Shown here in pieces: positions 20,542-58,548 of a DNA stretch of 64,000 nucleotides. The notes under the pieces are model-generated. The model was not told the DNA's origin. It made no database searches and worked only from the letters and a program-made list of their open reading frames with translations. The stretch is from Argopecten irradians (lineage: Eukaryota > Mollusca > Bivalvia > Pectinida > Pectinidae). Position 1 is the first letter of the stretch. Each line of letters opens with the position of its first letter. Both the position numbers and the translations under genes were made by a program. The stretch lies in NCBI RefSeq assembly GCF_041381155.1, contig NC_091135.1, forward strand, positions 6,625,620 to 6,689,619. The letters run 5' to 3'.

Positions 20542-20686
20542 TACCTATAAGTGATCGAGATCGGGTTATCTCAGTCGAGGGTTAAGATTTTGTAACATAA
20601 TTCCAACCGAGGCGTTAGCCGAGGTTGGGGTGTTACAAAATCTTAGCCCGAGACTGAGATAACCGGATCTCGATCACTTACAGGTA
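20542..20686. mobile_element. foldback element a, 145 bp
   Basis: Inverted repeat of ~60 bp per arm: TACCTATAAGTGATCGAGATC at the left pairs with GATCTCGATCACTTACAGGTA at the right. The centre contains CCGAGGCGTTAGCCGAGG. About 180 bp further right lie two TGAC-TCA octamers (20864-20895: TGACCTCA and TGACATCA), recalling the arrangement at 28.4 and 40.0 kb. Confidence 0.8.
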
Positions 20687-21107
20687 ATAGATTTTTTTCT
20701 CGCTCCTCTAGATATTACAAAACCCATCAATACGCGTTACTTTGGTTATATTAATCGACACATACTGTTTTTAAAATTAAAAAACAAAAAAGAAACAACC
20801 AAACAATGCTTAGTAAATGACTGAATACAAATATTTATAATAATATCAGTTTTCTGAAGCGTGTGACCTCACCGATTGGAGAGTATGACATCATATGTGC
20901 GGATTGTTACATGAATGTAAAATTTCGCCAAAAATCATGTAAAGCTAACAGACAGATCGGACGAGATAGAAAAATCTAGCACGGGGTATCATATGAGTTT
21001 TCCCTGTCCGAGAATACTGCCCTACATTGAACATACGTGGATGATGATAGTAAGAGATCAATCAAAATAGATGCATGAATAAAATTCAGAAACGAATATC
21101 TGCCACA

Positions 21108-21402
21108 TAAGGTAGGACATTAGAATTGTTCATGTTGCCCTTATGACATATATTGTGAAAGGCGACTATATTTGGGATATTTTTGGGGGTTATTTTCTCT
21201 TTGTCCAGAGTTTTGTTCTTCCTAACATTTTCCTCCACACCGCTTCAAACTTTTGTCCCTGTGTTGAGGTTTAGCTCCTGTGAGGAAGAGTGAGGCCCTG
21301 TCCCCTAGTCAAGACACACCATAGTTAATAAAATGAGTGAGATAATTGGTTTGCCCGTTGTCAGTATAATGTAATCGGGTGGGATAAGTTGTTCAGTATA
21401 GA
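21108..21402 (-). repeat. dispersed repeat family 2, reverse partial copy
   Basis: Begins TAGGACATTAGAATTGTTCA and contains GGCGACTATATTTGGGATAT, CCTGTGAGGAAGAGTGAGGC, and GCCCGTTGTCAGTATAATGT. It stops ~180 bp before the first coding exon of the lectin gene and so lies in its upstream region or first intron. Confidence 0.75.
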
Positions 21403-21582
21403 CGTCACTTGAAATTTCAATTAATGTTAATTAATGATAATAGAACCTTAATGCTAACTAACCAATCAATCAAATATATATCATTTTCTGAATTTTGGAA
21501 AATGATAATGTCTAAAGTTTTATTATTTAATCGTATGTTTCGAAATTAATATAAGGCCTATATGGTTGCTTGTTTTTTTCAG

Positions 21583-24500
21583 ATGAAGTGGAACAAAGAA
21601 ATCCAGTTTTTATTGCTGTCTGTGTGCTGTTGGTGTATTTTGTCTCAGGAGACTTTGTCGACAGGGGGAGGTAAGCTAGAGTTACAGAGGTGATTTAATT
21701 TCTCGTTACTGCACTTCTCGTATAAAAAAAATATTCATTATATTTCAAGAAATTATGAATATAATTTGTAGTATTTCCATTGAATTCTAAGCATCATGTA
21801 TGTAAAGACTCCTATATGTCCAATAGAGGATAATGCAAATACATTAAGGCATCGAATATGAAAGGAAGAAAAAGTAGAATAAGATTTTATCAAAGTAGTC
21901 GCTAAGAACTTATTTATAGTATATTGAATTTAACAAAAGTATGAATGTTATGTTAGTATGATGGTAGGATATTTCTATAAACAATGAATTATCAATATTT
22001 GATTGATGTTTTACTTGGCAGTTCTAACAGTGGTTGACCCGCCCCCGGGAGATATTGCCAGACGAGATCAGGAGATTGGGAGTAGGTATTACTATAGTAC
22101 AGAAAACATATGCATTCACATGATATAAAGATAGCACTAGATACCTACCATTCCTTTTCCGCGTGGCCTTATCTATTGTTTTATTAATTATAAGTTATCT
22201 AGATATTGTTTTATTAAGTTAACGTCGTATTTGCATTCTTGCGGTGTATTGATAAAGCGACAGATTGCCATGAAAATAAGAACTCTTTTGTCCACACTGA
22301 TGGAATTGGCTTCTTTGTCTCATATAGTGGGCTAATTCGTATCGTGCAGACATTCAACGGTAAAGATCCAGTGCCATCTGAAAAGTAACCGTTGATATAC
22401 CTTCTTTAACATACAGGTACATTACGTATGAACTTAATCCATGATGTAACATATATTAGTTTCAAATAGAGTTTCTGACCTCACCAATACACATTGCATC
22501 ATAGACTTTCTAGTAGGCCCCTTGTAGACTCCGTTTTATTAGATGAAACAGAGAAAACCGATTCGACAGAGGTTTTCTTCTGCTGGGTACCTGCTTTTGG
22601 GTTAAACCTTACTTGATAAAGACAAATTTTCGTCAGCTTTTAACGCTCAACAAACTACAAATAAAAAGAAACGGCTTGATATTTACTAAATAAATTATAT
22701 TTGAAATTGTATAAAAAAAAATCAATTTATATTCCTACATACAAATACTCTTGATGAAATAAAACAAATTACGTCGAATATCAAACGTAAATTAGAACCT
22801 CTTTAATCTAAGCGTTTTATCGCAGGAGTTGTCTTTGAACTGTAACACTTTAGACAGCACATTTACATTGTTTCACAACTGGACGCTTCCAACATTTAAT
22901 TGTCCGACAATTTTTTTGTATTAAAAATATGTTCACAACTGGACGCTTCCAACATTTACTTGTCCGACAACTTTTTTGTATTAAAAATATGTTAGCAAAG
23001 GTGTTATCAGCACTGTTGGTTATTGCTATGTTTGAAGCATTGATCTAACGTTGTATTATGGTACATACATTAACCAATGCGACTTTAGGTTTTTAAACTG
23101 TAAGTGTGAAACGAAATTGAAAGTATTGTTATGTCTCAAAAAGAGTGCCAGCATTTTCAAACGGTATTTTCCACGTTCCAATGGATAAAGTAGCACATTT
23201 CTCCCCTTAGGTTTGAAGGCATTATGTAGCAGATGTAAATCCGTTGTCTGTACACTTGGTATACCCAACGATTGTGGAGCATATGTAGTGTGTGAATCAG
23301 GACGTCACCCAACACAACTTCGATGTCCTTTTGGAACTTTCTTCAATGAAAGAGAAAATAGATGTGATTTTCCTTCCATCATCAAATGTGCCAAAGGTGA
23401 GTTAATGACTGATCCATGGTATTGCATGAGGCTTAGGGTGATTTAGGATGATTGGACTAATTTTATAAATAAATTAGTGTATGACGTATTATATGGAAAA
23501 AAAATCTATGTTAAAAACGTGCATTTTTGGGATGAGATAGAGTAAGTAGCATAACCGTTATCTCGGCGAAGGGAAAATAGTTTTATTTTCCGATTCGGTC
23601 CGTATTCAACACCTTTATTAGAACAATTAGTATAATGGTATTTTATTAGATATTTTGCTATAATGTGATTCTCCTATTTCAGACCCTTGTTCCGATCCAC
23701 GATATCCAAACTTAGTTTCCTACCAAGACTTCCGAAGCAAGGAGCCGAACTGTCGATATTATTGGAAGTGTACCGGAAGATATTCCTCGGCAGAATGTTG
23801 TCCGGAAGGAACTTCATATAACGGGAAGGAAGGCGCATGCGTCAAAGACAAATCATGTAACGCTTCATGTCCGCGAAACCAGGACACTCAACATGATAAG
23901 GGTATGAATGGTGACTCTTAGTTGAATAGAAAAAAAAAACATTTTGTCCATTAGATAGATCTCTCAACAATACTACGCTTTAGTCTCATTTTGTCACATG
24001 ATCCGCCTGATATCCAGTGATATAACCCGTGTAATATTTTTGCATAAGTCACTAGTGTAATATGACCTGGAGATATGTTCATTGGCTGGAAATTCATTGT
24101 GACGTCATGACAGAGACAATAAAATGACGTGCAGTCAGGATTTCGCAGACGGCGGCACAAAACTGCTGCATCCGCTTGATGTTCGCTATATATATATATA
24201 TATCTTAACGTGAGAATCTTTGAAATGTAGATTGCTGTAGTTATGTGATAAATTTCATATACCATCATTGTCTTAGCAACTCTTCCTCGGATTCTTGATT
24301 TATCTTCGATAAGTTTTCTTACTTTGCATTGTAACTTCACTTCCTCTTTGCTTGTAAATTCCATCAGACATGTTATAAAGCAGAACCTTCTTGCCTATAT
24401 GAAACATATATTTTAGAATTGCAGTTCTGTCGCACGAATACCACGACTATTCTTGTGTTGCTTATTTCGTTTTAAATACAAGCATGGTACTCTTAATACA

Positions 24501-27500
24501 TATATACTTTTATAGCTTTTAGTCAAAATATGGCAAAAGCTATATCAGAAACCGTTATGAAGTTTAATTCTACTTACTTTATTTGTAGACACGGATACTC
24601 AGGTGACGGTGTGTAATGGTAAAACAAAAAGAGTCAAATGTCCTCTTCGAATGGAACTCCAAATCAATGACGTGTTTTATGGACGGACCGATACAAAAAC
24701 ATGTGGTCCAACTCCACCAATCAAGAAGCCGTGCTCTATTCGAACCGCTCTGAAAGTTATTCGGGACAAATGTGCCGGGAAACAGTCCTGCTCTGTTACA
24801 GCTGACAAATCTCTTTACAGTGACCCTTGTCCAGGGATTAATAAATATTTACGGGTGGATTATACGTGTAAACCAGGTAGGTCTAAATGAATGAAAGTTA
24901 TAAAACCAATGTATGCGTAGAAAGTTATAAAACCAATGTATGCGTAGAAAAGTACGAAGGGTATATATATTATATAGGATGTGATGGAAACAATGGTAGC
25001 GTCTGCTATCAGCAGGGTTTTATTTTATTTTAAATTTTGTATTGTAAATCTGGTGTGATTCAGACATCAGGCACGTCATGTTTTATTTGTTCTGTATCAA
25101 ATGTCGAAAGCCTTATTTTACTGATGATATTGACAGGTTGCAATCTAAAGAGCAAGGATGGCAAGACGTTCTACAACGAGGCAAATGTTGCTGAGATACA
25201 AAAATGTGGCCATGGTACAAGATTTGATGCCAAGCTATGCACATGTATTAGATCTGGCAGCGTGGCACCATGTAAGTAACGTTTATCTGACACAATTAAG
25301 ATTTTGGTTTATTTTCATGATACAGACAATAATACAGCAGACAAAATATCTTTTCGTCATTATTGGAATAGTGCGTAGCTCTAAATTCCCCTACTCTGAT
25401 TATTATTGGTATGGTTAAACTGTACAGTAGGTATAAAATATTTATGATTTCAAAATATTATTTGCATGTCTACCATTAAGTTCGTATATGTTATTTTACG
25501 TTCTTCATCATTTCAGTATGTCAGCTTGAAGTCCATATTACCTTTAATGACATTGAGAGTAAAATTGTGAAAAACGAAGCCGAAGCACCGGTGTGGATAT
25601 ACACAAAATCTATCGAGAAGATTAAAGGATACGGTCAGTTCCGAGGGAATAGCTCAGTTACGATTCCATTTTACAGCGGAAATGATAATCTCTCTCGGAA
25701 ATTCGGAATTCAAATAAGAATCTACGTAATGGCACAAGGACCTCCTAAACAAATTCTACTCACAAACTGCGACAGAGATACCTCAAGATATCCGGATGCA
25801 TCATCACTCGAAATTTATATCAATAGAACATCTTCCGGTTCTAAAATCAATATTAGAATTGTCAACAATGATAATACAGTGACGACATTGGCACTTCCTA
25901 TAAAAGTAAGTTGACTACCCTTTCTTGATTGATATGTCAATCGAATCTTATGAACGTGTTTAGGTTATAAGACACGCGTTCTTGTTGAGATCATTGAAAA
26001 AAGTTCTGAAGATATTCATCAATTAGAAAGCGTACAATTCGAAAACAAATCTTTTGAGAATCCTTGTCTGGTGACATGTTTCCTTATCTAAGCAAGGCCT
26101 TTTTTTCGTGTATGCAAAACCTTTGCATTGGACTACATATATGCATTACTTTTTTTGTTTGCATGCTTTTTTCATGTACCAGATATCATACACACGTATA
26201 TAAGAGAGATTAGCAACGCCGCCATTTTTATGATCAGCCGTTGAACCTCTGCATGTGCTTAGGTTTTTTTTTAGATTTACTCTTAAAAATTTAAAAACAG
26301 GAGAATATCTTTGATATGTTTCAAAACGTTCACTAATTTTCAGATGGTTTGAATAAGATTTTGAAAGAAAACAATAATATTTTAACTTCTATACTAATAA
26401 AACAAAATGCACTTCCGGTTTTGAACGTCTGATTTTCGAAAAACCAAGAGAAAAACATTATCTAATGTTTAAACTTTGAATTGGTGTAAAATATCATATT
26501 TTAAAGAATACACTTAAAAGTAGTTAACCAAGGGAAAATAATATAAACCGGAGGTCACTCTGCCATCAACAAAGATAAAGAAGGAGTTTTATATGCTATG
26601 TTCAACTATTATTTAGTATGTCTGCATTATGTTTTCAAAGCATCATCCATTAGGATAACATGACAGCAGGTAATTTATCTGAAGATCAAATCATACTTGA
26701 GCGATGTAACGAAAAATATCCATCAAATTGCGGCAATGTATACATGACATGTGGTATAATTAAGTTTCACATGTATGAACTCTTTCAGATCCAAGAATGG
26801 ACTAACGTCCTTTTCCGCTTTGACGGGTCATATCTACATGGGACGTTGCAGCATATCAACAAAGGAAACGGCAAAGTTCAGGAAGACAAGGGCAAGGTCG
26901 CCTTCTCAGGTATATAGTAACATAAAAACCAGGAAATATCAGTACGGAATGATTACGATCACAAAAGATTTATTATTGTTACCGTTCATCAATAATATGC
27001 AGTTTAATAGATGTTTAGAAATTATTAAAGGAATAAACTGTAAAAAGATTTATTAAAGGACAAGTAAACCTGTACCATATACCCGTATTTTTGCATTACA
27101 CACAGAAATAAAATCATATATTAATTAATAAAACAAATATAGCACCATGTGATATTTGCTAATCACCTATCGAATCAAAATAAGGCGGCTACTCTACAAA
27201 TAACTTACGGAATTCTCGATTGAATGCTACTAAATAAATGAAATCTCACGTTTGTTTCTTTAATATTTCTATCTAATTCACAGGAAACATGATGACCAGC
27301 GTTGGACCCTTAAGGATAGGATCTTGTACAGATTTTGTGGATGGACTATACGCCTTTATAGACGAAGTAGGTTTGGTTGTATTCTTTCAAACCTTTTATT
27401 CGAACTATTATAACTTGAAAAGTAAATAGTTTAATCTTATCTTTATATGTCATGAAAATGTACTATTAAATGCTATTTACATTATTGTGTCCAATACGGG

Positions 27501-28026: not shown

Positions 28027-28370
28027 TCCATAATCGATGCATAAATTTTCTACATGTTATATTCACATCCATTGCTAGTAATGTGACAAACACAATAAGA
28101 GTTACTGTACTAAAAATTGTTTAAGGTATAGAATTAGCTTTATCACATAACAGCCATGTCATACGACCATGTCATAAATATCGTAAGACACATGTGTTAT
28201 AACACGATTGTGAGGTCACATATGGATTTGACGTCTTGCTATCTGTATTACGTCACATGATTGTTTCAGTAGACGGAAACGTCACATCCGAGCCGGATTT
28301 CTACTTAAATAGAGAAGAAATTTAGAGTTTTGCATATATTTATATTAATAAAAGTTATGTGATAAATAGA

Positions 28371-28513
28371 ATCTTACACTCGTGACTATGTGATGTGAAA
28401 TTTAACAAACTCGTTAAATAATTTGATATGCCACTCACCTAAAGACTAATGACATATCAAATTATTGAACTCGTTTGGTAAATTCCATATCACATAGCCA
28501 CTGATGTAAGATC
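28371..28513. mobile_element. foldback element b, 143 bp
   Basis: Inverted repeat with arms of ~60 bp: ATCTTACACTCGTGACTATG at the left and CATAGCCACTGATGTAAGAT at the right, with AATAATTTGATATG paired further in. Flanking clusters of ACGTCA-type sites lie at ~28208-28290 and 28658-28719. It starts 345 bp beyond the lectin-gene stop. Confidence 0.8.
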
Positions 28514-28657
28514 TTCTTTTTAGTGACCAACGTTTAAAACATGTCGATATAATAGAGGCTTATATGAGTTCTGAATAACGAATGCTATTGGCCGATCATG
28601 CTACACCAAATCCCAAAACGACGTGGATACAGTACAATTTGCCGTCAATTAGTCACG

Positions 28658-28719
28658 ACATCCGGTGATTATAACGTCACAAAATCACGTCAAATAATGA
28701 CGTCACAATCACCGGATGA
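28658..28719. repeat. TGACGTCA module b
   Basis: Itself an imperfect inverted repeat: CATCCGGTGATT at one side and AATCACCGGATG at the other, enclosing AACGTCAC, TCACGTCA and TGACGTCA (28698-28705). It lies 145 bp right of foldback b. Confidence 0.6.
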
Positions 28720-31199
28720 TGGGACTGATCGACGTTGTTTTGAATATATCTTCATTTATTATATGGCTCACACAGACGCAATCGATTTCTATTTTCATCA
28801 TGTTAAATGTAATTGATAAGTGTGATGATGAAACGATACTTTAAGAATGTTTACAGTACAAAACGGCGGTGTGTTCTATAATGTAATATTTTTACATTAA
28901 TACATTTTGCCATTGTAATATATCACCATTATTTTGATATTTCAGTTACGCAAATAATAATACATTACCACATTTACCCGAAACAAGTGTATTGCATGAT
29001 TTTCATTATTATTACCTGTCAAACTTTAAAATAGGTTCGAAATGTATTAGCCCACCAAACGCAGTCAGAGCTTGCAAATTAAAAGTAATAATCGACATTT
29101 CGATGTTTGATGTGGACAAAGAAATTGCATATAATACATTTTGGTTTCCCAGTGTTGTTAATCATTTATGCTGATTAATATTAAACTATATTTGATACTT
29201 AAACTAGAGTTCGTGTTTGGTTTATACATTATTATGACAATTGACATTGAACGTACATATCATTCGTAAGTGACATTTTAGTTTAGAATGTAATATATGT
29301 TAACACAAATAAGTAACATAATTATATGAGATATGTACAGAATCATATTTCACGTTGAATATTTAGTAAAATAGTAAATTTGATGTTTTCAGTCATTCTT
29401 AAAGTGAACAGTCGGGCAAGGATGGCTAAAGTCGGTAAAAATGGTGTGAATGTATCCAGTATAATTTCTTATGAAATGGAAAAATAAAATCTCTCGTCAA
29501 AATCTGTCTGCGTACGAAGAAATTAATTTAAAGTATGGAAATTCTAAAACGTCCCCCCGGCTCAGTATGTCCGTAGTTACATTTCCACGCAGCCTCGCTT
29601 TCAATGCTTTCAACTTTTCTTTACTTTAATGGTCAGAACTGGGAAACTAAGCAGAACTTGACCGTCGTATTAATATGTGAGAACTTTTGGAAGGCCAATG
29701 AACGCATTTAGACAGGTTTTCTTTGCCCGACTATTCACTTTAATTCGAGTGACATTAGATAACCTTAGCGTGAGATAACCATAAACCCTTAAGAAGATGC
29801 TGTGAATTTTCTTCTACTAGATGTAAAAACAAATGAAACATAATTAATACAATGATTTTTTTTAAGTAGTGTACATTTGTTAAAATGCAATACATTCAGG
29901 GATTTTTACTTCCATTTCTTTCAAGATGATGATTCATATTATTTCCAGAGAGTTGGGTGCTAAATAGACAATATATCTATACGTGAATTTCACGTAAACC
30001 GGGACGAAAATTTCGCATGAATATTTTCACACGTGAAATTAACGTGAAAGGAAAGAAACAAATTACAAATAACAAAAACGCAAAACTTACCTTTTTACAA
30101 CGTGACCCTTTCCAAATTGAAACACCTTTTGAAGATCATTGTAAACAATTCTTCAAAGTGTTTAAATCAGGGTTTGTTTTCAAATATTTATTATAAGTAT
30201 GACTGGTGGCTCAGCCTTTGTGTCAGTAGGTCCGAGTATCAAAAATTGATAATCTAAGTTACAACATATCATACATAATAATGACAAATATTCGAATTGA
30301 TTTAAGAAACGTGAAGCATTTATCGGTGATTTTAAAAGTAGCCTATGTATCAAAAGGTAAGCAAGCGACAGTCCGTATTGTATCTGGGACCGAGGTTGGT
30401 ATAAGAAAACATGTCAAATGAAGTATAAATGGCGACTATAAATGATCCATAGTTAATGAAATAGGCTAATAGCTACATATGCCAATTCTATCGATTCTAA
30501 AGAAGTATCAACATACATCAATCAAAAGCACAAAGTAAAACAATGTCAAGTGCTTGTCCTTCAACATAACAAGCACATGATATCAACTCTGATTTTGGTC
30601 AGAAAGACTTTGAAACACCCTGATAACGAATGCACGTCTATCAAATTTAAAAAGGAAAACGTTTTTTTTTTCATTTCTGATTATGCAAAGTATTTAATTT
30701 CAATTTCACATGCCTAGGTGATGTATTGATTTTTGGTTTTAGTTTACCTTTCCTATAATTCAGGTGAACAAATGAATGCCACGGGTAAAAACCCCTAGCT
30801 ATGCCTTGATACCAATTGTGATGTGGCCTTTTGAATAAGACAGTTTGGAAATGGCGGCTAGCTATAGCTTGACAAGTAAACAATCGTAGAATACAATTAT
30901 ATCTTTCTAATACCCGACAATTTATAATTCTCAATCGTAAAACAGGAAGTCTTTTTTCATAACATTGATATTTTTACTTTTGTGTTGTTCATTTTTCTTT
31001 CTCGTAGTTGTTTAGTTTTGTGTGAACTCAATCAATAAAAAATCAATTTTTATCTTATATTTTTTTACTTATGAAACCATCATTACCTGTGAGGGACATG
31101 ATATTTTGACAGACTTGATGATCTAGCTAGGTAGACTTGTCCTATACATTATAATCACACAATGGCCAGGTGATCCAATCATATAGTGAATCTATTTGT
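28720..31199. other. intergenic, nothing firm
   Basis: AT-rich with no supported gene. 30700-31050 appears to be a diverged copy of part of the segment duplicated at 32.7 and 34.3 kb. 29380-29760 contains a more GC-rich stretch of unknown nature. Confidence 0.35.
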
Positions 31200-31615
31200 A
31201 AAATATTGTGCTCATCGCTATAAGGATGTTTTTTTTTAAATAAAATAATACTTAATATCCTGATATTTTACACCATGACCTAACAAGTTTGTATTAATTA
31301 AAGAAATGTGTTATAATGACCCGAATAACGATAGTGTAAGCTATACGTTGACCTCGCATATTAATAAATATCTGTAATATATGTCAAGATGGGACACTGT
31401 CCATGTACCTTCTAGTCGAATTGTCTGAGAGCTGATAATAAGAGGACTTGGTAATAAGATAAACAGGTTCCCTGGAAATGTTATTTTTAGAGAAAACATT
31501 CACTGTGTTAATAAGAACATGACGTTCATGTGACAGTAACGTGATGGATAAAATGGAGGACTTTGTTTATGAGGGACCTAACATCATAGAAAAAAGCAAC
31601 TTTGTATTTAATCAA

Positions 31616-39906: not shown

Positions 39907-39992
39907 ATTACTTTTAAAGGCGTAGCATATGCGTAAAAATATGGAGAAATATCATTACAGTTTATGAAGTCCATTTAAGCACTGAGTGTTTC

Positions 39993-40322
39993 TCAGTTGG
40001 CATTCATAACCCATATGAATGCCAACTGGACAGAGGCAAATTCCATGAAGCGCTTCATGTTTTGAATTTGCCTCTGTTCAGTTGGCATTCATATCGGCTA
40101 TAAATGCTAACTTAAAGACGTTCAATGCTTATATTTATATTTGGTTACAATTTGATAATGAAATCTCGAGATATTTTGCATCTATAATGAATTAATCATT
40201 CGTTATCGACAGTCATTTGAACAGCCGTTTTCCATGATCGCTGGCACGACAATTGTGACGTCACAATGATAATGACGTCATAATAAACGATTGAAGTTCA
40301 TGCTCTATATGACTGCCAACTG
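39993..40322. mobile_element. palindrome + TGACGTCA element c
   Basis: A palindrome at 40013-40094 (ATATGAATGCCAACTGGACA paired with its complement, centred on GAAGCGCTTC) is preceded by a third arm copy at 39993-40008. Beyond a 110-bp spacer lie TGACGTCA at 40256-40263 and 40273-40280, then ATATGACTGCCAACTG at 40307-40322, an inverted match to the left end. The whole is thus bounded by CAGTTGGCA(T/G)TCAT inverted repeats. Confidence 0.7.
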
Positions 40323-42189
40323 CGCTTGGTAAGGTTACATAGAGAGACTGCAGTGAAAAGATTATTGTCGAAACAATTTTGAATTAATGATTCTTACTCC
40401 TCGTATACCAAAACTGTTATTAGGCAACACTCTTTATGTTTACTGCTGGTTAGGTTTGTACAGAACAAGTCTACGACAGAACAGTTGTCGAACAGACATA
40501 GGTATAATTTGTCCAAAAATTCTAAGATAATTTGACAAACTGTTCTACTCTTAGGAAGCCTGAAAAATAGAGGCAAGGTATTGGACAGACTGCGGAATTT
40601 GGATTCTGTTGATATGAATAAATGTCCTACACTTTCGTGTTGTATAGCAGCTGCTATTTAGCAATGGATGTAAGTCAAATAGTCTATAGCGTAAGAAAGG
40701 AAGGGACAGTCAGTTTGGGGCGTGTTATTGCCGACGTTTGTCCAATAATTTACATAATAACCAGTTTTAGTCTACCACCGTGTCTGGAAAACAGTCAAAG
40801 TTTGTATTAATATAAGATTTTGCAAGATTTTTCATAGTTGGATGTGTTAGATGTGTGAGAAGATATTTTCGAGTCATGTGTATGAAGTCATCAAGTATTT
40901 GTAATTCACTTCCTATGGATAAGTGATTGTAGTACATGCATATATGACTATGTTCTGATCCAGCAAAAATCATATAATCAAATAGTGGAAATATTTAACT
41001 ATTGCTTGTATCTAATAGTGTTCAATATAAAGAGAGATTGATGTTAATGTTTCTGAGATTGTTTAGATAATTTGTATATATTTTAACTCTTTAGCCATTT
41101 TACATATGTTCTATATATTCATGACATATTTTGTTTATTGATAAATTTTAATTATATACACAATATGTACTCCTATCGTTGCCTTGTTTACATGTACTAT
41201 AAACATGGATATATTCTGGTATATATTATCTAATATCGCGATTTGCTGTGTAAATATTTCATGATGTCATTACTTCCCGCGCGATAAATATATTAACATT
41301 TAACAACATAGTTTCATATACTGTAAACCAATATATAATACTTCGCGTTAAAGTTATTGTCCAAAAATATTCGCGACTACATAAATTCACGGTGAGGGGC
41401 TTTTGCAAATTATTTTGTATTCATCTATACATTTGACACAAGTATTAGCGAAACATTTGAATTCGCATGCGAGATATTTCGCGAAAAGTGGTTTACAATT
41501 TTCACCAAATATCACGTGCGGGGAATTTTTTGCGCAAAAAAGTCTGCGTAATTAGCGTAAGTTTCCCTCTCGCGAAAATGTCCCCGTTTACAGTAATCCC
41601 ACTACTGTTTTGCTAAATGTTTCTATCGTTTGTTTTAATTGTGCATCCATACCAAATTTTGAACTGTTGCTGTCCAGCATGTCATCTCTGATACATATGA
41701 CTGGACAGCTTAAGTTGATTTACTGGATGATGTGATTTCTTGTGCATATTATATAATAATGGTCAATAAAAGTTTTGATTTAATGGGATAGACTATTCAT
41801 GCTATTCAATGTTTCAATATCTTATTAATTGAATAGATGACATAAGGAATAAAGACATTTGATGTTTAACAATTTTGTTTTCTTCTTCAATTCATACGCT
41901 TCATTTTCATGTGTCATTCTCATTTTCGGGAACGTATAGCAGAATAGAATTGCAATAATTATCCTGTAACAGTCACTAAAGCGTAGTTGCCTTAAGAAAA
42001 AAGTTTCATGCAGTTAGGCCATCACCCTGGTTAATATCAGCTAAATATCGGGCTTGATATACGTTATACTCATGATCATATACTTATACAGAACATCAAT
42101 ATTTCTCCCTTACTTGACAGTGGTATCCCGCGGTTGTTAGGGAAAAGATAACTCTGCCTTTTACCGGGATAAGGAAAAGACAGCTTACA
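40323..42189. other. intergenic with one MITE
   Basis: No supported gene. The interval holds the TACTGTAAAC-ended element at 41319-41595. 42114-42185 contains a degenerate partner of the palindrome arms of element d (CTTGACAGTGG, GGGATAAGG). Confidence 0.4.
41319..41595. mobile_element. MITE with TACTGTAAAC ends
   Basis: Short inverted termini TACTGTAAAC / GTTTACAGTA enclose 277 bp rich in TTCGCG motifs (TTCGCGTTAAAG, ATTCGCGACTA, ATTTCGCGAAAAG, CTCTCGCGAAAATG). This resembles a widespread invertebrate MITE type. Non-coding. Confidence 0.6.
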
Positions 42190-42194
42190 TGCGC

Positions 42195-42665
42195 TAGAAA
42201 ATGACGTGACGTCATAAATACATTCGACAATCATTGCCGACGACGTCATTAATATTTAACGCTTTGCGACGTCAATGTAAAAGTATGAGAGAATAATAAT
42301 CAAACATGGGGATACAAGGTGGACAGGGATATCTCAACCCTCGTAGTTAAGATTAATAGAATCTTTCACCCTCTTTGGTGTGAGACAGGAGAATCTCAAC
42401 CCGAGAGGTAAGATTCTTAAGCTGTCAAACACGAGACATTTCCGAGTGTTTGACAGCTTTTTAAATAAGAACCTTATTCCAAGGGTTGAGATATCCTATC
42501 TCACCCAAAAGAGGGTGAATGATTCTTCTTCTCTTACCCTATGTGAGCACGTGCAAATATCTCGTGTAGCTTGTCTTTACCCTAGGGTGAGATAGAAAAA
42601 TCTCACACCGGTAAAATTGGGGATATCCCTATCCTGGGTAAGAGAAATCCTTGTCCACTTGACAG
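42195..42665. mobile_element. TGACGTCA + nested palindrome element d
   Basis: TGACGTCA at 42207-42214, CGACGTCA near 42241-42248 and GACGTCAA near 42268 are followed by a ~350-bp nested inverted repeat. The outer arms (ACAAGGTGGACAGGGAT at left, ATCCTTGTCCACTTGA at right) enclose arms around TTCACCCTCTTTGG / AAAGAGGGTGAA, with an inner AAGCTGTCAAACAC / GTGTTTGACAGCTT core at ~42419-42463. Arm sequences are unrelated to those of c or e. Confidence 0.7.
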
Positions 42666-43259
42666 ATTCATGTAAGATTTTATTATTAATCATTCATATC
42701 CACATATGAAAGAGTCTTATGATATTTGTCAGTGTACCGTACCTGATAACATTTCAGGTCCTCTCCAGACATAGATGGCTCTCTTTTTTTTTAAGATTTA
42801 TGATGTAGTACAAATATTACGTACTTCATCATATATTTAAAGTGGTAGACACCTGTGTTCCAAGTAAGAAAATGTACTGCAGCAAACGTTTTTTTGGACC
42901 ATTTGCTTTGTTCTTTGGTGCCTCGTGACCGTAATTGCATATTATATATGGAAATTTCTTCTTTCAATAAAGTGCACTGTCTGCCAAACGTCATACCATG
43001 GATCATGGACGTAGACACAGTTCCTTGTGTGGATTGCCAGTTTGACGCGTACGTTACTTCATGCGTGTATCCACGATATTGAGTTCGGCCGAAAAACTAC
43101 ATTACACTATCATAAAGAATGTTGTTGTTGGCTAAGTGTACCAAACAAAAAACAACTGTTTCAGTACAACGTTAATTTTCTTACCTACGTACAACAATGC
43201 GGAACCGTGCAAGGGGGTCAGGGTACTCTTACAGAGGAACTGTATAAAATAAAACATCA

Positions 43260-47179: not shown

Positions 47180-47424
47180 AGTTCTGTTTGGTTCTTGAGG
47201 ATTTACCGGTTGCGTGTTCTTTCAAATTATCTGTGAAAAAAAGTAGTTTATGTGAAGGTCACCATTATAGACAAACTAAAAACTCCAGATATTTCCTCTA
47301 ATCTGTTAGCATAACATGTGTACATTTGTCTTTTATTAACTTATTAAAGTTTAGTTATCACTGCGTGATAATTTTGGTAAACGGCATTAAGAAATAATTG
47401 GAAAAAACTTTAGAAGTCTTCTTA

Positions 47425-47776
47425 TTAAAGATGCCGCTGACAAATAACATTTTTTTCTCTATCAAAAACAGGAGCAGGCGATTAAGTATTTTTCTTCGTT
47501 TACAAAAGTTACATTGTTTACATCATTACCACAAGTGAAGAGTTTAAGCGTCTAATTTAATTCAAGATAAAAAATATTAAAAATAATTAATTGCATCCCG
47601 AAAAAAATCCATGGCACTATATCCTATATGGAATGAATTACTGATTACGCATGCACCAAAAGCAAAATGAATCATTTCATATTATGTTTTGAGTTAATTA
47701 GACATATATATACAACACAAATTATTGTTAAAATGACGAAAATCGTTTATTGTCTGTAGGCGGTCGAGCATCTTTG
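47425..47776 (-). mobile_element. TTAA-type MITE family 1, copy E (reverse, diverged)
   Basis: Reverse copy from TTAAAGATGCCGCTGACAAA to CGGTCGAGCATCTTTGA. It is more diverged than copies A-D and its right-hand TTAA is lost. It lies ~200 bp upstream of the NHL gene exon. Confidence 0.75.
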
Positions 47777-48012
47777 AAAAAAAAATTATGAAAAAAATAA
47801 ATAAATAAAAAGCCCGTTCTTATCATGTACTAATAATAATATTATTTTCGGACTGATTTCGGAGCTTGATTTACTACCTAGAGATTTAAGGAAAAAATAT
47901 TACCAGTGTAAGAAAATCACCAAGTCATGTAGCTTTTTATATAGGCTTTGATTTAATGTTTTCACAAATTAAATTAAATGGAAGCTAGATACCAAGCGAT
48001 ATTTGTAAACCG

Positions 48013-48376
48013 TTAAAGATGCTCCATCGCCGACAGAGCATAAATGATATTCATTATTTGAACAATAATTGGCGTTTAATCGTGTATATATATATCTAAT
48101 TAACACAAAACATAATATAAAATAATTTATTTTGCCTTTGGTTCATGCGCAATCAGTACTTCATTCCATATAGGATATAGTGCCACGGAATTTTTTCGGG
48201 ATGCAATTAATTATTTTTTATATTTTTAACTTATAAGTAAAATTAGAAGCTCAAACTTTCAATGGTGGTAATGGTGTAAACTAATTAACTTTTGTAACTG
48301 AAGAAAAATCCTAAATCGTCTGCTCCTGTTTTTGATAGTGAAAATATACCATTTGTCAGCGGTGGAGCATCTTTAA
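48013..48376 (+). mobile_element. TTAA-type MITE family 1, copy D
   Basis: 364 bp, ends TTAAAGATGCTCCATCGC and GCGGTGGAGCATCTTTAA. It looks closest to a family consensus, with perfectly matching termini. Confidence 0.88.
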
Positions 48377-50820: not shown

Positions 50821-50978
50821 GCATTGATTCGAGACTATCTGGCTACAAGTAAGCGATGGAGTTTATAAATATTAAGATTGCTGAGATTTCAGCATGTCTT
50901 TTTCTTAATCTTAAAATTGTTTAATGGAATGTTTATAATAACACAATTTTCATCCATATTACAGAAAAAAACGACAAA

Positions 50979-51968
50979 ATGGGAAATTCTAAATCAAACT
51001 TTGAAGAGACCATTCATTCCTATGAAAGATGCCATACGATGGATAGGTATGAACCAAGTGTGTGTAATAATGCAAAGTGGAGAGAACTGGATGTAGGGGA
51101 ATTCTGCTCCCCATGTTATGAACATCGCATAGGGAGACCAAATCGTGTCCTCTGCAGCAAACCGGAAACTGCAAATGAAGGCAAAGAATTGAGGTTACAA
51201 ACGGCCGACAAGAAATCGGTCAGGGACATTGGTTCACAATGCGACCCGACCGACTTGAAAGGTAATGAGAGTAAACTTTTAAAAGATGAATGCACACAAA
51301 CATCTAAAGATAAATGCATCAACGGAAACGTGTTAAATGCTGAAAACCATGTACTGGTTTCCAACATTCAATTCCATGTGCAAAATCAGGAGGCGAATCA
51401 TTATATAGATTGTGACAGCGAGGATTCCCTGTCCAAGTCAGGTAAGTTTGATGACGACGAGGAAAAGAAAACATATCGCGAGCTTGAACTAAACATTGTG
51501 GAACTAGAGTTAAAGATTCAAGAAATCGAAAAGAAAAAGGTTGAAATGGAAAGAGAACATGAAACATCTTGTTTAAAACTTGTCAATGACAACAGAAAAA
51601 TGAATGAGAGTCTGAGTCTAATCCAAGATCATGTTCGACGAGAAAAGATCGAGAGTGAACAGACAAAAGATGAAGTTGACAGGGCTCTTCAAGACAGACA
51701 AAGACTGATTGACGAGATCACCGCACTCACTAAGAGTTTTGAAAGTATGATTGTCGAAAAAGAAAGACTGCAAATCATCATGGAAACATCTTTGTCCACT
51801 TTCGAAAACAAGCTTTATCAGAAGGACGAAGAAATTCAGAATTTACAAGAAACGATCGAGCATGACAGAAACAATTTCGAAGAGGAACGTGGTGAATATT
51901 TGACTGTGATTGAGTGTCTGAAAACAGAGTTATTGTTTCATGAAAACAGACAGATTAGATCTATATGA
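50979..51968 (+). CDS. probable N-myristoylated coiled-coil protein of unknown function
   Basis: 329 residues; family not recognised. MGNSKS fits the N-myristoylation rule (Gly2, Ser6), so membrane anchoring is plausible. Residues 18-49 hold Cys18, Cys29, Cys43-x2-Cys46 and His49, a possible small zinc-binding module. Residues ~60-160 are polar and acidic, probably disordered. Residues ~160-320 are a strongly charged coiled coil (ELELNIVELELKIQEIEKKK and following heptads), suggesting self-association. An acceptor (ACAG at 50961-50964) lies 14 bases before the ATG, so a 5' non-coding exon is likely; the coding part seems intronless. No signal peptide or membrane segment is seen. Confidence 0.8.
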   Translation: MGNSKSNFEETIHSYERCHTMDRYEPSVCNNAKWRELDVGEFCSPCYEHRIGRPNRVLCSKPETANEGKELRLQTADKKSVRDIGSQCDPTDLKGNESKLLKDECTQTSKDKCINGNVLNAENHVLVSNIQFHVQNQEANHYIDCDSEDSLSKSGKFDDDEEKKTYRELELNIVELELKIQEIEKKKVEMEREHETSCLKLVNDNRKMNESLSLIQDHVRREKIESEQTKDEVDRALQDRQRLIDEITALTKSFESMIVEKERLQIIMETSLSTFENKLYQKDEEIQNLQETIEHDRNNFEEERGEYLTVIECLKTELLFHENRQIRSI

Positions 51969-53437
51969 AGCAAGGATGAAAACCCCATATGTTCTAGAGG
52001 ACATATTTTCATTGTGGAAACTGTGTGCAAAAACACTAAGTGCAAAAACACTAATAACAAATACTAGTATCCTACAGTCTGAAATTGGAAGGGTACTTAG
52101 GCTGTTTTACGACCACTGAATGATAAGCAAAATATTTTGCATTAAGATGATTTAGGGTATTAGCTCCAATATAATGATATTTTTAGGCTTATATATATCA
52201 CCTCTTCAATATAACTAATTTCTAATTGATAAAAAGTAGGTATGTATCGAGGCTGACATTATAGGTTTTACTGTTGACTCGTAATTCTTGTGTAACATCT
52301 AAATTTTTGCGAAATATGCAAAATAATACATTTTACGAAAACCAGTCCACAAGGCTCTGAACATATTTTTGTCACCAGCTAATAATGTCATTATGTTCAC
52401 TAGTGTCTATAAAGGTAGAAAGAGCGTTTGTGTGGCCGTATTCAATTTACAAAAGCATAAAAATCCAGTCCGTTTTGATATTGTCATGCAAATAACGGTT
52501 TCAAATTATGTCACGCAAATATGGCATACACAATGTATGTATATGGAGGCGTTCCAATTGATGATACCAATGCACCTATTCAATGTTATAATGACATTTG
52601 ATTGTAATGAGAATGTTATTTGTAAGAATAAATGCTAAGTTAATGTGCATTTCCACAAATCTTCAAATTTTGCAAAAATTACAGAAGTTAACACTTTTCT
52701 CAAAACTAGTCTTCGTTTCATGCTAGGTGTCTAATGGTATATTATAGGAGTAGTTGTGATAATTGAAATGCCTTTTTATAGGCCATATTCGCCGATTGCA
52801 TGACAAGGTCAAAGGACTCACAACATGACGTCATAACTATATGGTGACAAAACTATGTACCGAACCCAGTGGACTTGTTAACCTGAAATGCACATTGTTC
52901 GCATATTTCAAACTGCACAACAATTTATGAGTCATGGTAATACCTAATGTTAGCCCTGATGCATACTCATACTCATTTTTATCATCTTATTTTAGTGGTA
53001 TAAAGGCATGCAAAATGACTCTAGCTAAAACTAGCTTAGGGTCAGCTGCTTTTAGTAGAATATCTTACTTTTTCTGGGTACATGATAATCGCAAGGGTCA
53101 AAGGGTTAAAACTGAAATATACATTGTTTAAGTCCTAACAAAATTGATATGAAAACCAAAATGATATTTTTACCATTTTTGCTTGGAAAGCAAGGGTTTA
53201 TAAATTTCAGTTCATAAGAAGTAGGTCACAGTGACCTAGTTGGGCATTTTTTTTCATTTGATATTGATAGCTTTTAATGGTGTTGCTGAAAAGGTTCATT
53301 TTTACACCATGCAGCATTGGGTTGATATGGATACAATGACCTACTAAAGATGATTACATCCTAGGGTCATATGGCCGGACTGGGTGATAAATACGGTTTT
53401 ATTTAAAGGTATTGTCTATCTGGTAAACATCTTTGGT
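51969..53437. other. 3'UTR and intergenic DNA
   Basis: No further gene found. A TGACGTCA octamer lies at 52826-52833 without a recognisable palindrome beside it. Confidence 0.4.
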
Positions 53438-54776
53438 TTTTAGGTCATCTGACCCGAAGGGTCAGGATGACATATTGTCATCATGCACCGTCCGTCGTCG
53501 TGCGCCGTCCGCCGAAGTTTGAAGTTTGTTCAAATGAATGACCTTAACCTTCATTCAAGGTCACGGGGGTCAAAAAGGCTAAAATCTTTAAACGACTTCT
53601 TCTCAAGAACCAGAAGGCCCAGGGTACTGATATTTGGCCTGTAGGATGCTGGGATGAAGGGCTACCAAGTTTGTTCAAATAAATGACCTTGACCTTCATT
53701 CGAGGTCACAGGGGTCAAATAGGCTATAATTATTTAAACAACATCTTGTGAATAATGAAGAGGTTTAGAGACCTGATATTAGGCCTGTGGCATGCTTGGA
53801 TGAAGGGCTACCAAGTTTGTTCAAATGAATGACCTTAACCTTCATTCAAGGTCACAGGGGCCAAAAAGGCTAAAATCTTTAAACGACTTCTCAAGAACCA
53901 GACGGCCCAGGGTACTGATATTGGGCCTGTGAGATGCTGGGATGAAGGGCTACCAAGTTTATTCAAATGGAGGACATTGACCTTCATTCAAGGTCGCAGG
54001 GGTCAAATAGGCTAAATTCTTTAAATGACTTCTTCTCAAGAACTAAATGGCCCAGGATACTGATATTGGGCATGTAGCATGCTGGGATGAAGGGCTACCA
54101 AGTTTGTTCAAATGAAGGACCTTGACCTTCATACGAGGTCACAAGGGTCAAATAGGCTAACATCCTTCAAACAACTTATTGTCAATAACTAAGAGGCCTA
54201 GAGACCTGATATTGGGTCTTTGACATGCTTGGATGAAGGGCTACCAAGTTTATTCAAATGAAGGACCTTTACCTTCATACAAGGTCACAGGGGTCAAATA
54301 GGCTAAAATCCTTTAAAAAAACTTCTTGTCAATAACTAAGAGGCCTAAAGACCTGATATTGGGCCTTTGACATGCTTAGATGAAGGGCTATCAAATTTGT
54401 TCAAATGAATGACCATGCTTTTCATTCAAGGTCATGGGGGTCAAAAAGGCTAAAATCTTTAAACAACTTCTTTTCAAGACCAAGAAGGCACATGGTACTG
54501 ATATTGGGCCTGTAGCATGCTGGGATAAAGGGCTACCAAGTTTGTTCAAATGAATTACCTTGACCTTCAATCAAGGTCACAGGGGTCAAATAGGCTAAAA
54601 TCCTTTAAACAACTTCTTGTCAATAACTAAGAGGCCTAGAGACCTGATATTGTTCAAATGAATTACCTTGACCTTCAATCAAGGTCACAGGGGTCAAATA
54701 GGCTAATATAGGCTAAACGACTATGTTGTATTGTACTTATAGTCAGATGACCGTTACGGCCCATGGGCCTCTTGTT
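53438..54776. mobile_element. element enclosing a ~145-bp tandem array (about 8 units)
   Basis: The left end, TAGGTCATCTGACCCGAAGG with a CCGTCCGTCGTCGTGCGCCG tract, and the right end, CAGATGACCGTTACGGCCCA followed by TGGGCCTCTTGTT, bracket about eight diverged units of ~145 bp. Each unit reads GGGCTACCAAGTTTGTTCAA, ...GACCTTCATTCAAGGTCAC, AGGGGTCAAATAGGCTAA. Units start near 53515, 53655, 53804, 53944, 54091, 54237, 54383 and 54528, with a truncated last one at ~54655. Non-coding; similar elements are, from memory, common in bivalve genomes. The TGACCTTCATTCAAGGTCA core is itself a near palindrome. Confidence 0.75.
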
Positions 54777-56351
54777 CTTTTCGTGTTTAAATTATTTTAA
54801 GTTAATTATATTCATTTGAGAGAATCTCAACAAAACCCCAACATTACATGTAACATACAAGCGTTGTGCTTTGCTCCCCTTTACATGTACAAGATAGTAA
54901 AAGTGACTTTTGGATTCTAAATTTCGCGACGCTACTTAGATCACAACATATTGGATTTTTGTCTCATACCAAACAAACTTTATAAATTGACTAAGATTTC
55001 TTTCCTAAAACTATTTTCAAGTCCGTGCAGACCATTAATTCCAAAGAAATACACTGTTACATTAAATTTTGAATACATGCTACATACATTCAAAATTACT
55101 TTTAAAGCGCATAGGTGATCTTAGGTGACAAAGCTGTGTCTTTGACATATAATCTGGCAATCTGCAATTTGATTTCACCAACAGGTGAAACAGCGGTCAT
55201 GGTTTCGTATCAAATGGTTGAAACATGAAAGTATTTAGGTAGGGTCACGGGAATAAGATACCCCAATTCTACCGGCAGGGTAGGTGTTACTTGAGATACT
55301 CAAGTGCTTAATGCTTAAACATGCAAAACGCCAGAGTACGCTTAATAAATAGACCGTTACCCAGGCCATGTAACTCTAGGTTGTTATCATCTCAGGCAGG
55401 GTATGTAAAGACCCACATGCTATGCTTATCGTCAATCTCAACCTATCATATGGTTAAAAATGAAATTTTCAGCAACTTCATTACAGTTGATGCTGAGATA
55501 GACAAATTGATTAACTAGGTCAATCCGACTTATTTCTTCAAATACATTTTTTTTTCAAGCAAATTATCCTGTCAAAGTAAAATTGCTGAATGAAATTGCG
55601 ACCCGAATTTTGGTCCCATTCTTGCTGCAATTTTTTCAGAATATCTTTTTTGTTATGCTTAATTAGAAGATATACAGTATAATGTGCAGTAAGAATAGGA
55701 AAAACATACACGTCGCAAATTCACTCAATTTTACTTTGACAGGATGCTTTACATTGAAAAAATAATGTATTTTCAATTTTTCAGTTATTTTCTTAATTGG
55801 AATTTACAAGCCTATGAATAGCAGGCAAAAAGTGCAAAAATATTAATAATTAAACTCTAAGATTTAATTTTGCATGACTCTGAGATTACTGGGCCCAGAA
55901 AAATCAAATGTTCTGAATAACATAAAATAGCTTATCCTAAGGTATCTCTAAGCAAACTAGTTTTGATTATCACTGACAGGCCATAAAATGACTCAAATTG
56001 ATACCGCTTCTTTATAATTAGGTTAGCATTATTATTGCAACAATCATCAATCATTGTTGAAGGTGTTTTTTTCAAGTTTGCTCGTTATGAGGTTTTTTTA
56101 ATTTGAGTGTACATCGATGTTTCATGGTTGCCCTATGTTATGTGCTATGGACAATAACGTAGCTTCATAAACTGAAGTAAGAAACTTGGTGTTTTATTTT
56201 GCTGAAGGCGTCAAAGCCATATGGTGAAATGAGCATTTCATCGTGATAATAAATCTAGCTTAGTCGGGTAATATTTCTTATCAAAAGTACCGTAAGTGAC
56301 GCTTAGTTACCCTCTTTGAGTGTTTAAATAACACTAACAAAAGGAACTTTT
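54777..56351. other. intergenic with one MITE
   Basis: AT-rich with no supported gene; contains the inverted-repeat element at 55566-55745. Confidence 0.4.
55566..55745. mobile_element. MITE with ~35-bp inverted termini
   Basis: ATCCTGTCAAAGTAAAATTG at the left and CAATTTTACTTTGACAGGAT at the right, with pairing continuing into a TTGCGAC/GTCGCAA block. 180 bp, non-coding. Superfamily not assigned. Confidence 0.75.
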
Positions 56352-58169
56352 ACAGCTATCGTTATATTTTGCCCCCGAAGCGATTTAATTAAACCCAGAC
56401 CCTTTTTGTAGTACTATGACAGAGAACCTGTAAGATACTTTTAAAAATCAAAAGGCCCAAGTGGCCTTTGCTATTGATGATTAAATGTTGCCATCCCGCG
56501 GTGTAGACCAGGTTTCCCTTTTTGATCCAAAACTATATCAAATTAATGTTCAATTTCGTAAAACGATACGTCTTCAAATGCTGACTGAACAAGTGAGCTT
56601 AAAAATCTATAATATTTTACAGAGTCTTGAAGCCACAAAATGGCAAATTTAGAGGCCCATTTTAAGCAATATCAATTTTTACCGAAGTGATACACGCACG
56701 TCCGTTTGCTATACACCAAAAATATTTTGTAATTATTTGGATCATATAATGTCAACAGTAGATACAGAAATCAGATAAAAATCTTAAATTGGTGAAGTTG
56801 TCGTCTAAAGATCAAACTGTTCGAAAGTCTATTATTTTAGAAATACGTGTATCAAGCAAGTACTACAGTTTTGCTCGCAATTTATAATTAATTAAGAAAC
56901 AAAAGTATTTCTTGTAATACCTATTTACGATTGCATCAGTGAAGTTTCATCTAAAGTTCAAAACAATTTGTATTGATAAAGTAAAATAGAAGAATTTGGA
57001 TGCTTCAATCATGAAATATAAGGGAATTCTATGGGACATTTTTTTATTCGAATGATTCCAACTTCTGGTTAATTTACACCTGAACTTGTTTGTACATGTA
57101 TTTGCAAATTCCACACTATAGTAAGTGAACGTTGTGAAAATTTCAAAAAGATCGGATACCGGAAAGTTTACTATTTCAAGTTCAAATATTACATATTTGA
57201 TCAATTTCTAGAAATTATCAATACCATATACTATGCCATTCACTAAATGATGGATAAAAACAGATTATTCAACTCGGTAATATATTCATCTTTTTGTTAT
57301 TCATTTTGTTAATCTATTATGAATATTAAATGCTAGAGTTCATAGACATAATGTTATACCATTTAAAGGCCCACTGTTTTGCCGAAACTGCTTTAATATT
57401 CAAAATGAGAATGTAAAACGAGATTGATAATTTTGTAGATTCAAAAAAGTTACAAAAAATATCTTACAGTTATTATTCCAATAATCATCTCTTCTGAAAA
57501 TTTAATTAGTAAAATTTATTCAATGTTAATTTTCATAACGCGGGTCGTCTTGTTTCCCGCCATCGTCCTTATTACCGCGCACTGTTGATTTTCACCGCGC
57601 CAGACTGCAAAACAGCTAAATGAATCTTTATTTATAACCGAGACTATGCAGGAATCTCGCATTTGTTTGGTATTGTAACATCATATAAGTCCATAGATAT
57701 CAATTTTATTACGTTATTATTGTTTTCAAGAAACTTTTGATTTTTATTTCGGAAAGTTAGTTGGCTTTTAACCGTTATTTATTTTTGTGTAAAGAGATAC
57801 TTGAGTTTTAAAGTGAATACTTTTTCCGGTTGATAAGATGTTCTTTTATGCATATAGACATCAAATTGCACTAGATAATATAGTTATTTTTATAATTTAT
57901 CAAGAAATAAATGGCAACTGCAATACGTGATATAAAATATATTATATTTTGGTAATAATTTTGCAAGGTAAAAATGCAATTATGCATAGTAAACACCTAA
58001 TTCTAGTTCAAACTCAACCAATGAACAAAGACAGTTATGGACAGATATACTTGCATGTATAAACCAACATTTAGTTGCGAATGACAAAGTCATATATTTA
58101 CATTTCCTTGTCACTTCTACTATATAAACTAACCAAGGCAAAGTTTATGACGGCATAGCTGACACCCAT

Positions 58170-58548
58170 AACGTGACCATTATGACGTTACTAATGTTGA
58201 CGTGGTGACGTCAACTAATCACCGTCAAAATGGCTGTTCCATCTCGTGGATTAAATCGTTGTTGATAAACGGTTTTCCTGGTCTAGCTTAAAAATAATGC
58301 CGAGGCCCTTAAATGAGTTGATAATGTAAATATAAGCATTAAACTATCTTCCTATGGCTATATGGTCTATATAGATGCCAGAGCTTTGCAGACAATCATC
58401 TCATAATGCGCTAGCGCGCATTATGAAGATTGTCTGCAAAGCTTTGGCATCTAAATAGCGCATTATGAAGATTGTCTGCAAAGCTCTGGCATCTATATAG
58501 ACCATAGATGCTCTACATAGATGCCATAGGAAGATAGTTTAATGCTTA
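58170..58548. mobile_element. TGACGTCA module and palindrome e
   Basis: ATGACGTTA (58181), TTGACGTGG (58198) and TGACGTCA (58206-58213) are followed by AAAATGGCTGTTCC. Then comes a palindrome at 58333-58548: TAAGCATTAAACTATCTTCC at the left end pairs with GGAAGATAGTTTAATGCTTA at the right. Inside, the GATGCCAGAGCTTTGCAGAC arm and its complement occur, the latter duplicated. Read in reverse, the order and several phrases (AATGCTTATATTTA, GAACAGCC, ACGTCATAAT) match element c. Confidence 0.7.

What the first reader, a model, noticed from the sequence alone, without database searches (positions are those of the whole stretch)
20542..58548. Family of elements pairing a locus-specific long palindrome with a TGACGTCA cluster
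At five places a long palindrome lies within a few hundred bases of several TGACGTCA/ACGTCA sites: 20.54-20.90, 28.37-28.72, 39.99-40.32, 42.20-42.66 and 58.17-58.55 kb. Palindrome arms are unrelated in sequence from place to place, while the module side shares phrases. The best pair is 40.0 and 58.2 kb read in opposite directions: AATGCTTATATTTA, GAACAGCC(G/A)TTTT, ACGTCATAAT. I noticed eight exact TGACGTCA octamers (19247, 24100, 28698, 40256, 40273, 42207, 52826, 58206), against roughly one expected at this base composition. The picture fits a non-autonomous mobile element with a conserved module and an exchangeable palindrome, or palindromes that grow in situ at the insertion.
Basis: partly seen in the sequence, partly recalled or inferred. 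Interest (0 to 1): 0.72.

Follow-up and report, generated by a model that had tools for sequence, protein, structure and literature searches.

The report
CRE-bearing rolling-circle elements with long hairpins
The window holds several short jumping-DNA elements, probably of the rolling-circle (Helitron/Helentron) type, that carry paired CREB-type binding sites and end in an unusually long, unstable DNA hairpin, and apparently thousands of relatives are scattered through the same genome.

Summary
Largely real. TGACGTCA is enriched in the window (8 vs 0.74) and genome-wide (75,543 vs 16,482 for the reversed word). Of 33 octamer clusters in held sequence, 9 lie 50-200 bp from a long hairpin, against 1.13 by rotation. 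The 20.5 kb case fails (no octamer within 1.2 kb).

The palindromes are family-specific, not locus-specific: copies elsewhere keep module and palindrome together. The elements have sharp ends: a short 5' inverted repeat, the CRE module, the inverse of that repeat, then a hairpin of roughly 125-225 nt at the 3' end. Five resolved insertion sites show no target duplication beyond 0-3 ambiguous bases. One family shows four clean head-to-tail dimers among its listed matches. That is the anatomy of non-autonomous Helentron/Helitron2 elements (HINEs). Intact Helentrons exist here, but those sampled share neither ends nor CREs, so the partner is unknown.

Unusual are the hairpin's length and instability (24 indel runs vs 6 in the module) and paired CREs recurring in families with different ends. 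CRE function is inferred, not shown. New variant of a known kind.

The parts
58094..58547 (+). F58-family element: 5' inverted repeat 58094-58105, CRE words 58183-58213 (exact octamer 58206), 3' copy of the repeat 58323-58333, terminal hairpin 58334-58547 with internal duplications
   Evidence: alignment with ten fetched copies, coordinates
28139..28519 (+). F28-family element: 5' inverted repeat 28139-28150, three decayed CRE words 28229-28285, 3' copy of the repeat 28354-28366, terminal hairpin about 28366-28519
   Evidence: alignment with eleven other rows, inverted repeat above shuffles, 0 of 60, coordinates
42102..42679 (+). Element of the L044 family: imperfect 5' repeat 42102-42115, exact octamer 42207 and further CRE words to about 42275, 3' repeat 42280-42293, then an enlarged, rebuilt palindrome to about 42679
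   Evidence: 75.7% over 263 bp with L044; coordinates; the automatic repeat test did not flag the octamer side of this copy
39976..40290 (-). Element related to F58 by its stem base: hairpin 39976-40131, octamers 40256 and 40273; 5' end not found
   Evidence: no 5' inverted repeat found
15452..16000 (+). Element of the same architecture without an octamer: 5' repeat 15452-15466, 3' copy 15827-15841, hairpin to 16000
   Evidence: perfect 15-bp inverted repeat, 0 of 60 shuffles, hairpin, coordinates
28643..28734 (.). Separate small CRE palindrome holding the exact octamer 28698; not part of the F28 element
20533..20695 (.).

Best explanation
These are short non-autonomous rolling-circle transposons of the Helentron/Helitron2 (HINE) type. 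Shown: in five families an inverted repeat of about 11-16 bp at the 5' end has its inverse copy just before a terminal 3' hairpin; two families inserted without target-site duplication at the five sites that could be resolved; one family sits several times as head-to-tail dimers. Inferred: a replicase supplied in trans by an unidentified Helentron-like element recognises the ends and uses the 3' hairpin as the stop of rolling-circle copying. Inferred: the hairpin is repeatedly shortened, duplicated and rebuilt because it is a palindrome (slippage or hairpin processing). Inferred, less sure: the paired CREs are a compact promoter or enhancer that lets CREB/CREM-family factors open or transcribe the element, perhaps inherited from the promoter of the autonomous parent.
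For: Sharp family ends: F58 and F28; L005 family, 39 of 47 long matches span base 1-4 to 724-726; L044 family matches mostly end at 378 of 380. Inverted repeat on the octamer side above shuffles (0 of 60) at W28371, L005, L006/L040, L039 and L044/L045; 2 of 60 for L019, the same locus as L039; F58 repeat read from sequence. Empty sites without duplication: L065, L005, and three copies in minisatellite arrays. Four clean head-to-tail dimers, gaps 1-5 bp, junctions read. Helitron_like_N 104 matches, frames up to 3,146 aa, 0 of 14 control genomes; one frame with OTU, Rep, PIF1 and endonuclease domains. Architecture fits PMC4067079 and PMC3627910 (passages).
Against: No partner with matching ends: one Helentron locus, nine 3' regions and two 5' regions sampled show no octamer, no long hairpin and no shared ends. 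No inverted repeat on the octamer side of W40 and L008; at L007/L041 the better repeat lies on the other side. The 5' hairpin of Helitron2 is not general. The hairpin is far longer than the 5-10 bp palindrome of mite HINEs. One L005-family pair is head-to-head. W15 has the architecture without an octamer, so CREs are not required. ETS-, YY1- and TATA-like words were noted by eye only.
Confidence: 0.8

Rival explanations
1. Cut-and-paste MITEs that happen to contain a second, internal palindrome.
For: Short, non-coding, high copy number, inverted repeats near both ends.
Against: No target duplication at five resolved sites, none adjacent in 11 F28 rows or L044; the 3' repeat is not terminal but lies before the hairpin; head-to-tail dimers.
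Confidence: 0.08
2. Promoter-driven hairpin-RNA genes: the CRE module transcribes the palindrome to give double-stranded RNA or small RNAs.
For: Oriented order CRE, AT-rich TATA-like words, hairpin, at a fairly constant spacing (gaps 105-186 bp in nine cases; orientation 271 vs 7).
Against: They behave as transposons. Stems show no forward G:T excess: 13 G:T vs 12 A:C in F58, 8 vs 31 in F28 (rows related). Palindromes are indel-rich. No Rfam match in the window.
Confidence: 0.07
3. Coincidence of common CRE words and common hairpins.
For: Ten hairpins in 64 kb make some neighbours likely; the 20.5 kb case and octamer 28698 are such neighbours; 24 of 33 clusters have no near hairpin.
Against: 9 of 33 vs mean 1.13, 0 of 5000 rotations as high; joined pattern 271 vs 1 and 7; module and palindrome move together.
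Confidence: 0.02

Closest known systems
HINE / DINE-1, non-autonomous Helentrons (PMC4067079; start of abstract, passages, sections 6 and 8 seen)
   Same: Inverted repeat near the 5' end with its inverse copy before a 3' palindrome; no target-site modification; T-rich sites; copy number above the coding partner; Helentrons in the same genome.
   Different: Published mite palindromes are 5-10 bp with the 3' repeat 38-60 bp from the end; here the hairpin is roughly 125-225 nt and unstable. CREs instead of microsatellites or central tandem repeats. Partner not found.
Helitron2 (PMC3627910; passages seen)
   Same: Asymmetric terminal inverted repeats of 8-15 bp, the 3' one immediately upstream of a hairpin.
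   Different: The 5' hairpin is not general here; the 3' repeat is far more than 20-30 bp from the end. That paper's CRe-1, -2, -3 elements have 7-19 bp target duplications; none seen here.
Oyster Cg_HINE elements (PMC7492417; passages seen)
   Same: Mollusc HINEs with subterminal repeats, a 3' palindrome, no target duplication, many families with differing modules.
   Different: They carry satellite-like central repeats and microsatellites; the passages seen mention no CREs or long palindromes.
Helitrons carrying heat-shock elements in Caenorhabditis (PMC6927752; abstract and outline seen)
   Same: A rolling-circle transposon spreads a host transcription-factor site through a genome.
   Different: There factor binding and gene induction were measured; here CRE occupancy is untested, and element type and factor differ.

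Membership tests
Non-autonomous Helentron (HINE) / Helitron2 | Asymmetric inverted repeats: one at the 5' end, its inverse directly before the 3' hairpin | tested here: met
   F28, L005, L019/L039, L044, F58, W15; not found for W40 and L008, wrong side for L007
Non-autonomous Helentron (HINE) / Helitron2 | Palindrome at the 3' end | tested here: met
   Hairpin flush with the 3' end in F58 and F28, but 125-225 nt rather than 5-10 bp arms
Non-autonomous Helentron (HINE) / Helitron2 | No target-site duplication | tested here: met
   Five resolved sites: L065, L005 (ambiguous by 0-3 bases), three array insertions L124, L126, L128
Non-autonomous Helentron (HINE) / Helitron2 | Insertion at TT / T-rich sequence | tested here: inconclusive
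   F28: TT directly before TATCAC in 9 of 11 rows with a recognised start, but those Ts may belong to the element; the L005-family array sites are A/C, T/A and A/A outside the element's own TT
Non-autonomous Helentron (HINE) / Helitron2 | Head-to-tail tandem copies (rolling-circle sign) | tested here: met
   Four clean L005-family dimers, gaps 1-5 bp, junctions read; L062 followed by a second copy
Helitron2 | 5' hairpin involving the 5' repeat | tested here: not met
   not seen in L005, L019 or W15, inconsistent in F58; suggestive in L044/W42 and some F28 rows only. Hence I say Helentron/Helitron2-like, not Helitron2
Non-autonomous Helentron (HINE) | Autonomous partner with the same ends | tested here: inconclusive
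   Intact Helentron frames present; ends differ in the one whole locus, nine 3' and two 5' regions sampled; most of the 104 matches were not examined
Canonical Helitron (Helitron1) | 5' TC, 3' CTRR, hairpin about 11 bp from the 3' end | tested here: not met
   F58 starts TATTTACA and ends AATGCTT, F28 starts TATCAC and ends CTCTAT, with the hairpin at the very end
Cut-and-paste MITE | Target-site duplication and inverted repeats at both extreme ends | tested here: not met
   the 3' repeat is internal to the hairpin
Hairpin-RNA / miRNA gene | Transcribed hairpin processed to small RNAs | not testable with these tools
   No RNA data; mismatch asymmetry does not favour the forward RNA

The most novel reading that the evidence does not exclude
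A separate branch of rolling-circle transposons whose own replicase uses a long, continually rebuilt 3' hairpin, and which has spread paired CREs to many thousands of sites. The elements would be switched on by CREB/CREM-family factors in the germ line and would give this genome a large transposon-derived cAMP-response regulatory layer.
Probability: 0.17. Interest if true: 0.72.

Novelty: new variant of a known kind. Interest (0 to 1): 0.5.

Why it matters
If the CREs are active, this would be another case, beside the Caenorhabditis heat-shock Helitrons (PMC6927752), of a rolling-circle transposon dispersing a host signalling site: 9 of 33 sampled octamer clusters lie beside a hairpin (one of the nine is outside the neighbouring element). 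The long terminal palindrome that changes between sister copies is a natural record of how animal cells process palindromes, and of what a Helentron-like replicase accepts as an end.

Tried and rejected
Hairpin-RNA gene model (my first reading of CRE, TATA-like word, hairpin): weakened by transposon behaviour, indel-rich palindromes and no forward G:T bias.

Apparent target duplications of 14-24 nt at three insertions: longer flanks showed minisatellite arrays.

Partner search by sampling Helentron ends: no shared ends, no octamers. Search with whole L005 and L044 elements for copies split around a coding region: none in the rows returned, but only 40 of 723 and 40 of 2,261 candidates were scored.

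Rfam, tRNAs, Pfam on ten window ORFs: nothing bearing on the elements. Paper searches: no title or abstract start listed names a CRE-bearing HINE or a Helentron with a 3' palindrome of this length; that speaks for those listings only.

Against a tidy story: 24 of 33 octamer clusters have no hairpin at 50-200 bp, and one run of paired octamers is a satellite array (C1:2345567-2347110), so the genome-wide CRE excess is not wholly due to these elements.

Full report
Where it is. The window is G000:C2:6625620-6689619 of an unnamed 845.8 Mb genome, GC 29-43% per 2 kb. A 772-aa open frame with a RING-finger match and the genome size suggest an invertebrate animal; that is a guess, no call names the organism.

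The observation. The octamer count holds (8 vs 0.74). Genome-wide TGACGTCA is 4.6 times commoner than its reversed word (75,543 vs 16,482); TGACGTCATAAT is 6,613 vs 231 over both strands; two octamers 8-30 bp apart occur 6,527 vs 589 times. Of 33 octamer clusters (7 in the window, 26 in 21 non-redundant loci at the start of contig 1), 9 have a hairpin (arms of 25 bp or more, 80% or more complementary) at 50-200 bp. Rotating hairpins within each sequence gives a mean of 1.13 and none of 5,000 rotations reached 9; window alone 4 of 7 (p 0.0014), contig 1 alone 5 of 26 (p 0.001). One of the window's four, 28698, is not within the element it neighbours. The 20.5 kb place fails. Of the 15 paired-octamer loci cut, hairpins were found in L039, L040, L041, L044 and L045; L044 and L045 are near copies of each other (98%), and seven of the 15 (L047-L053) lie in one satellite array.

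The palindromes belong to families. A 211-bp stretch of the 58.2 kb module has 1,138 first-look candidates (40 scored; other copies 88-92% identical). A 471-bp stretch over the 28.4 kb place has 2,187 candidates (40 scored), and almost all its matches stop near the palindrome's end. Ten copies of each were fetched and aligned. Both families begin with a short inverted repeat, carry two or three CRE words, then the inverse copy of the 5' repeat, then a hairpin that ends flush with the element; flanks are unrelated (L055 and L056 are one duplicated insertion). Hairpins were detected in 10 of 11 F58 rows (L059 lost its right arm) and 12 of 12 F28 rows.

More families. L044 and the 42.2 kb element are one family (75.7% over 263 bp; 2,261 candidates), and the window copy has a larger, rebuilt palindrome. 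L005 is a 726-bp family with 723 candidates; 39 of 47 long matches are full length, several at 97-99% identity, so it moved recently. The 40.0 kb element and L019 share the stem-base word AAGCATT with F58. The pattern TGACGTCA-N105-130-ATATAAGCATT matches 271 places with several visibly different module sequences (first 100 places listed), vs 1 reversed control and 7 with the second word inverted.

The automatic inverted-repeat test scanned both sides of each hairpin in the window and in 22 loci. On the octamer side it was beyond 60 shuffles for W28371, L005, L006/L040, L039 and L044/L045 (2 of 60 for L019, the same locus as L039). It was not for W40, W42, W58361 (where the hairpin call began inside the stem; the F58 repeat is read from the copies) or L008; for L007/L041 the better repeat lies on the other side.

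Insertion. L065 (an F28 copy) sits in a repeat with unoccupied relatives: empty ACTTAATT/TACAATAAC, filled with the element between and no duplication. L005 sits in a reverse-transcriptase frame with unoccupied relatives up to 95% identical; no duplication beyond 0-3 ambiguous bases. Ten further L005-family insertions were read. Three (L124, L126, L128) sit in minisatellite arrays and, read against the array, show neither duplication nor loss; the other seven show no direct repeat next to the element (one, L136, a weak match about 100 bases away; in L138 the 3' end was set by position). In all the sites whose 3' end motif was matched, ATA follows base 726, so the element ends slightly beyond my query. 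One search holds four clean head-to-tail dimers (C8, C11, C13, C15; gaps 1-5 bp; the inner C15 copy is cut at its 3' end), two partial arrangements on C12, and one head-to-head pair on C9; the four junctions were read.

What moves them. Pfam Helitron_like_N rings 104 times with frames up to 3,146 aa and in none of 14 control genomes. One frame holds OTU, Helitron_like_N, PIF1 and Exo_endo_phos domains, a Helentron by published description (PMC4067079, passages). So rolling-circle machinery is present. But that locus, nine 3' regions and two 5' regions have no octamer, hairpin arms of at most 30 bp, and no ends shared with these elements. Most of the 104 were not examined; the partner remains unknown.

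The hairpin. Against row L054, ten F58 rows show 24 indel runs in the palindrome (160 bp) and 6 in the module (248 bp); rows are not all independent (L055/L056), and L059 is truncated. Hairpin length is 125-225 nt in the ten measurable rows. L055 and L056 differ by 7 bp in the palindrome and 2 substitutions elsewhere in the first 560 columns. This is in-situ change, not exchange. G:T vs A:C mismatches in oriented stems are 13 vs 12 in F58 and 8 vs 31 in F28: no support for selection on a forward RNA hairpin.

The CREs. They recur in families with different ends (F58, F28, L044, L005, L019), while W15 has the architecture without an octamer. Nearby words resemble ETS (CCGGA), YY1 (GCCATTTT) and TATA sites; these names are recalled and were not tested. 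A promoter or enhancer role is my inference. CRE/TATA and ETS-CRE promoters are known combinations elsewhere (PMC5740062, PMC3464117; listing only).

Comparison. HINE: PMC4067079 (12-15 bp subterminal repeats, 5-10 bp 3' palindrome in mite, no target modification). Helitron2: PMC3627910 (8-15 bp asymmetric repeats, the 3' one directly before the hairpin, plus a 5' hairpin, which is not general here). Oyster HINEs: PMC7492417. A Helitron spreading a host factor's site: PMC6927752. Hence Helentron/Helitron2-like, with the 5' hairpin unmet and the partner missing.

Verdict. A real and widespread element class: a new variant of a known kind through its long unstable terminal hairpin and its CREs; the regulatory meaning is open.

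Noticed in passing
L132/L133 (G000:C3:20110665-20111675): An L005-family element appears to have inserted inside an F58-like element, close to its CREs (read by eye from the flanks).
   Followed up: no
window 28643-28734: A small palindrome with three CRE words between CCGGTGATT arms, facing the F28 element; could be another promoter-like insertion.
   Followed up: no
G000:C1:2345567-2347110: A satellite whose units repeat TGACGTCATATCAATAGC; it makes many paired octamers without hairpins.
   Followed up: no
window 47556-48241: The window's longest inverted repeat (159- and 62-base arms) belongs to a different, unexamined repeat.
   Followed up: no
L005:979-1704 (- strand): After the second octamer this element reads ATGGCGGACGGCAGCAAG..., a short open frame that might be a captured gene start (by eye).
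   Followed up: no
G000:C15:14917501-14936000 (L074, L075): An unbroken 3,146-aa Helentron frame with OTU, Rep, helicase and endonuclease domains, a sign of recent Helentron activity.
   Followed up: partly
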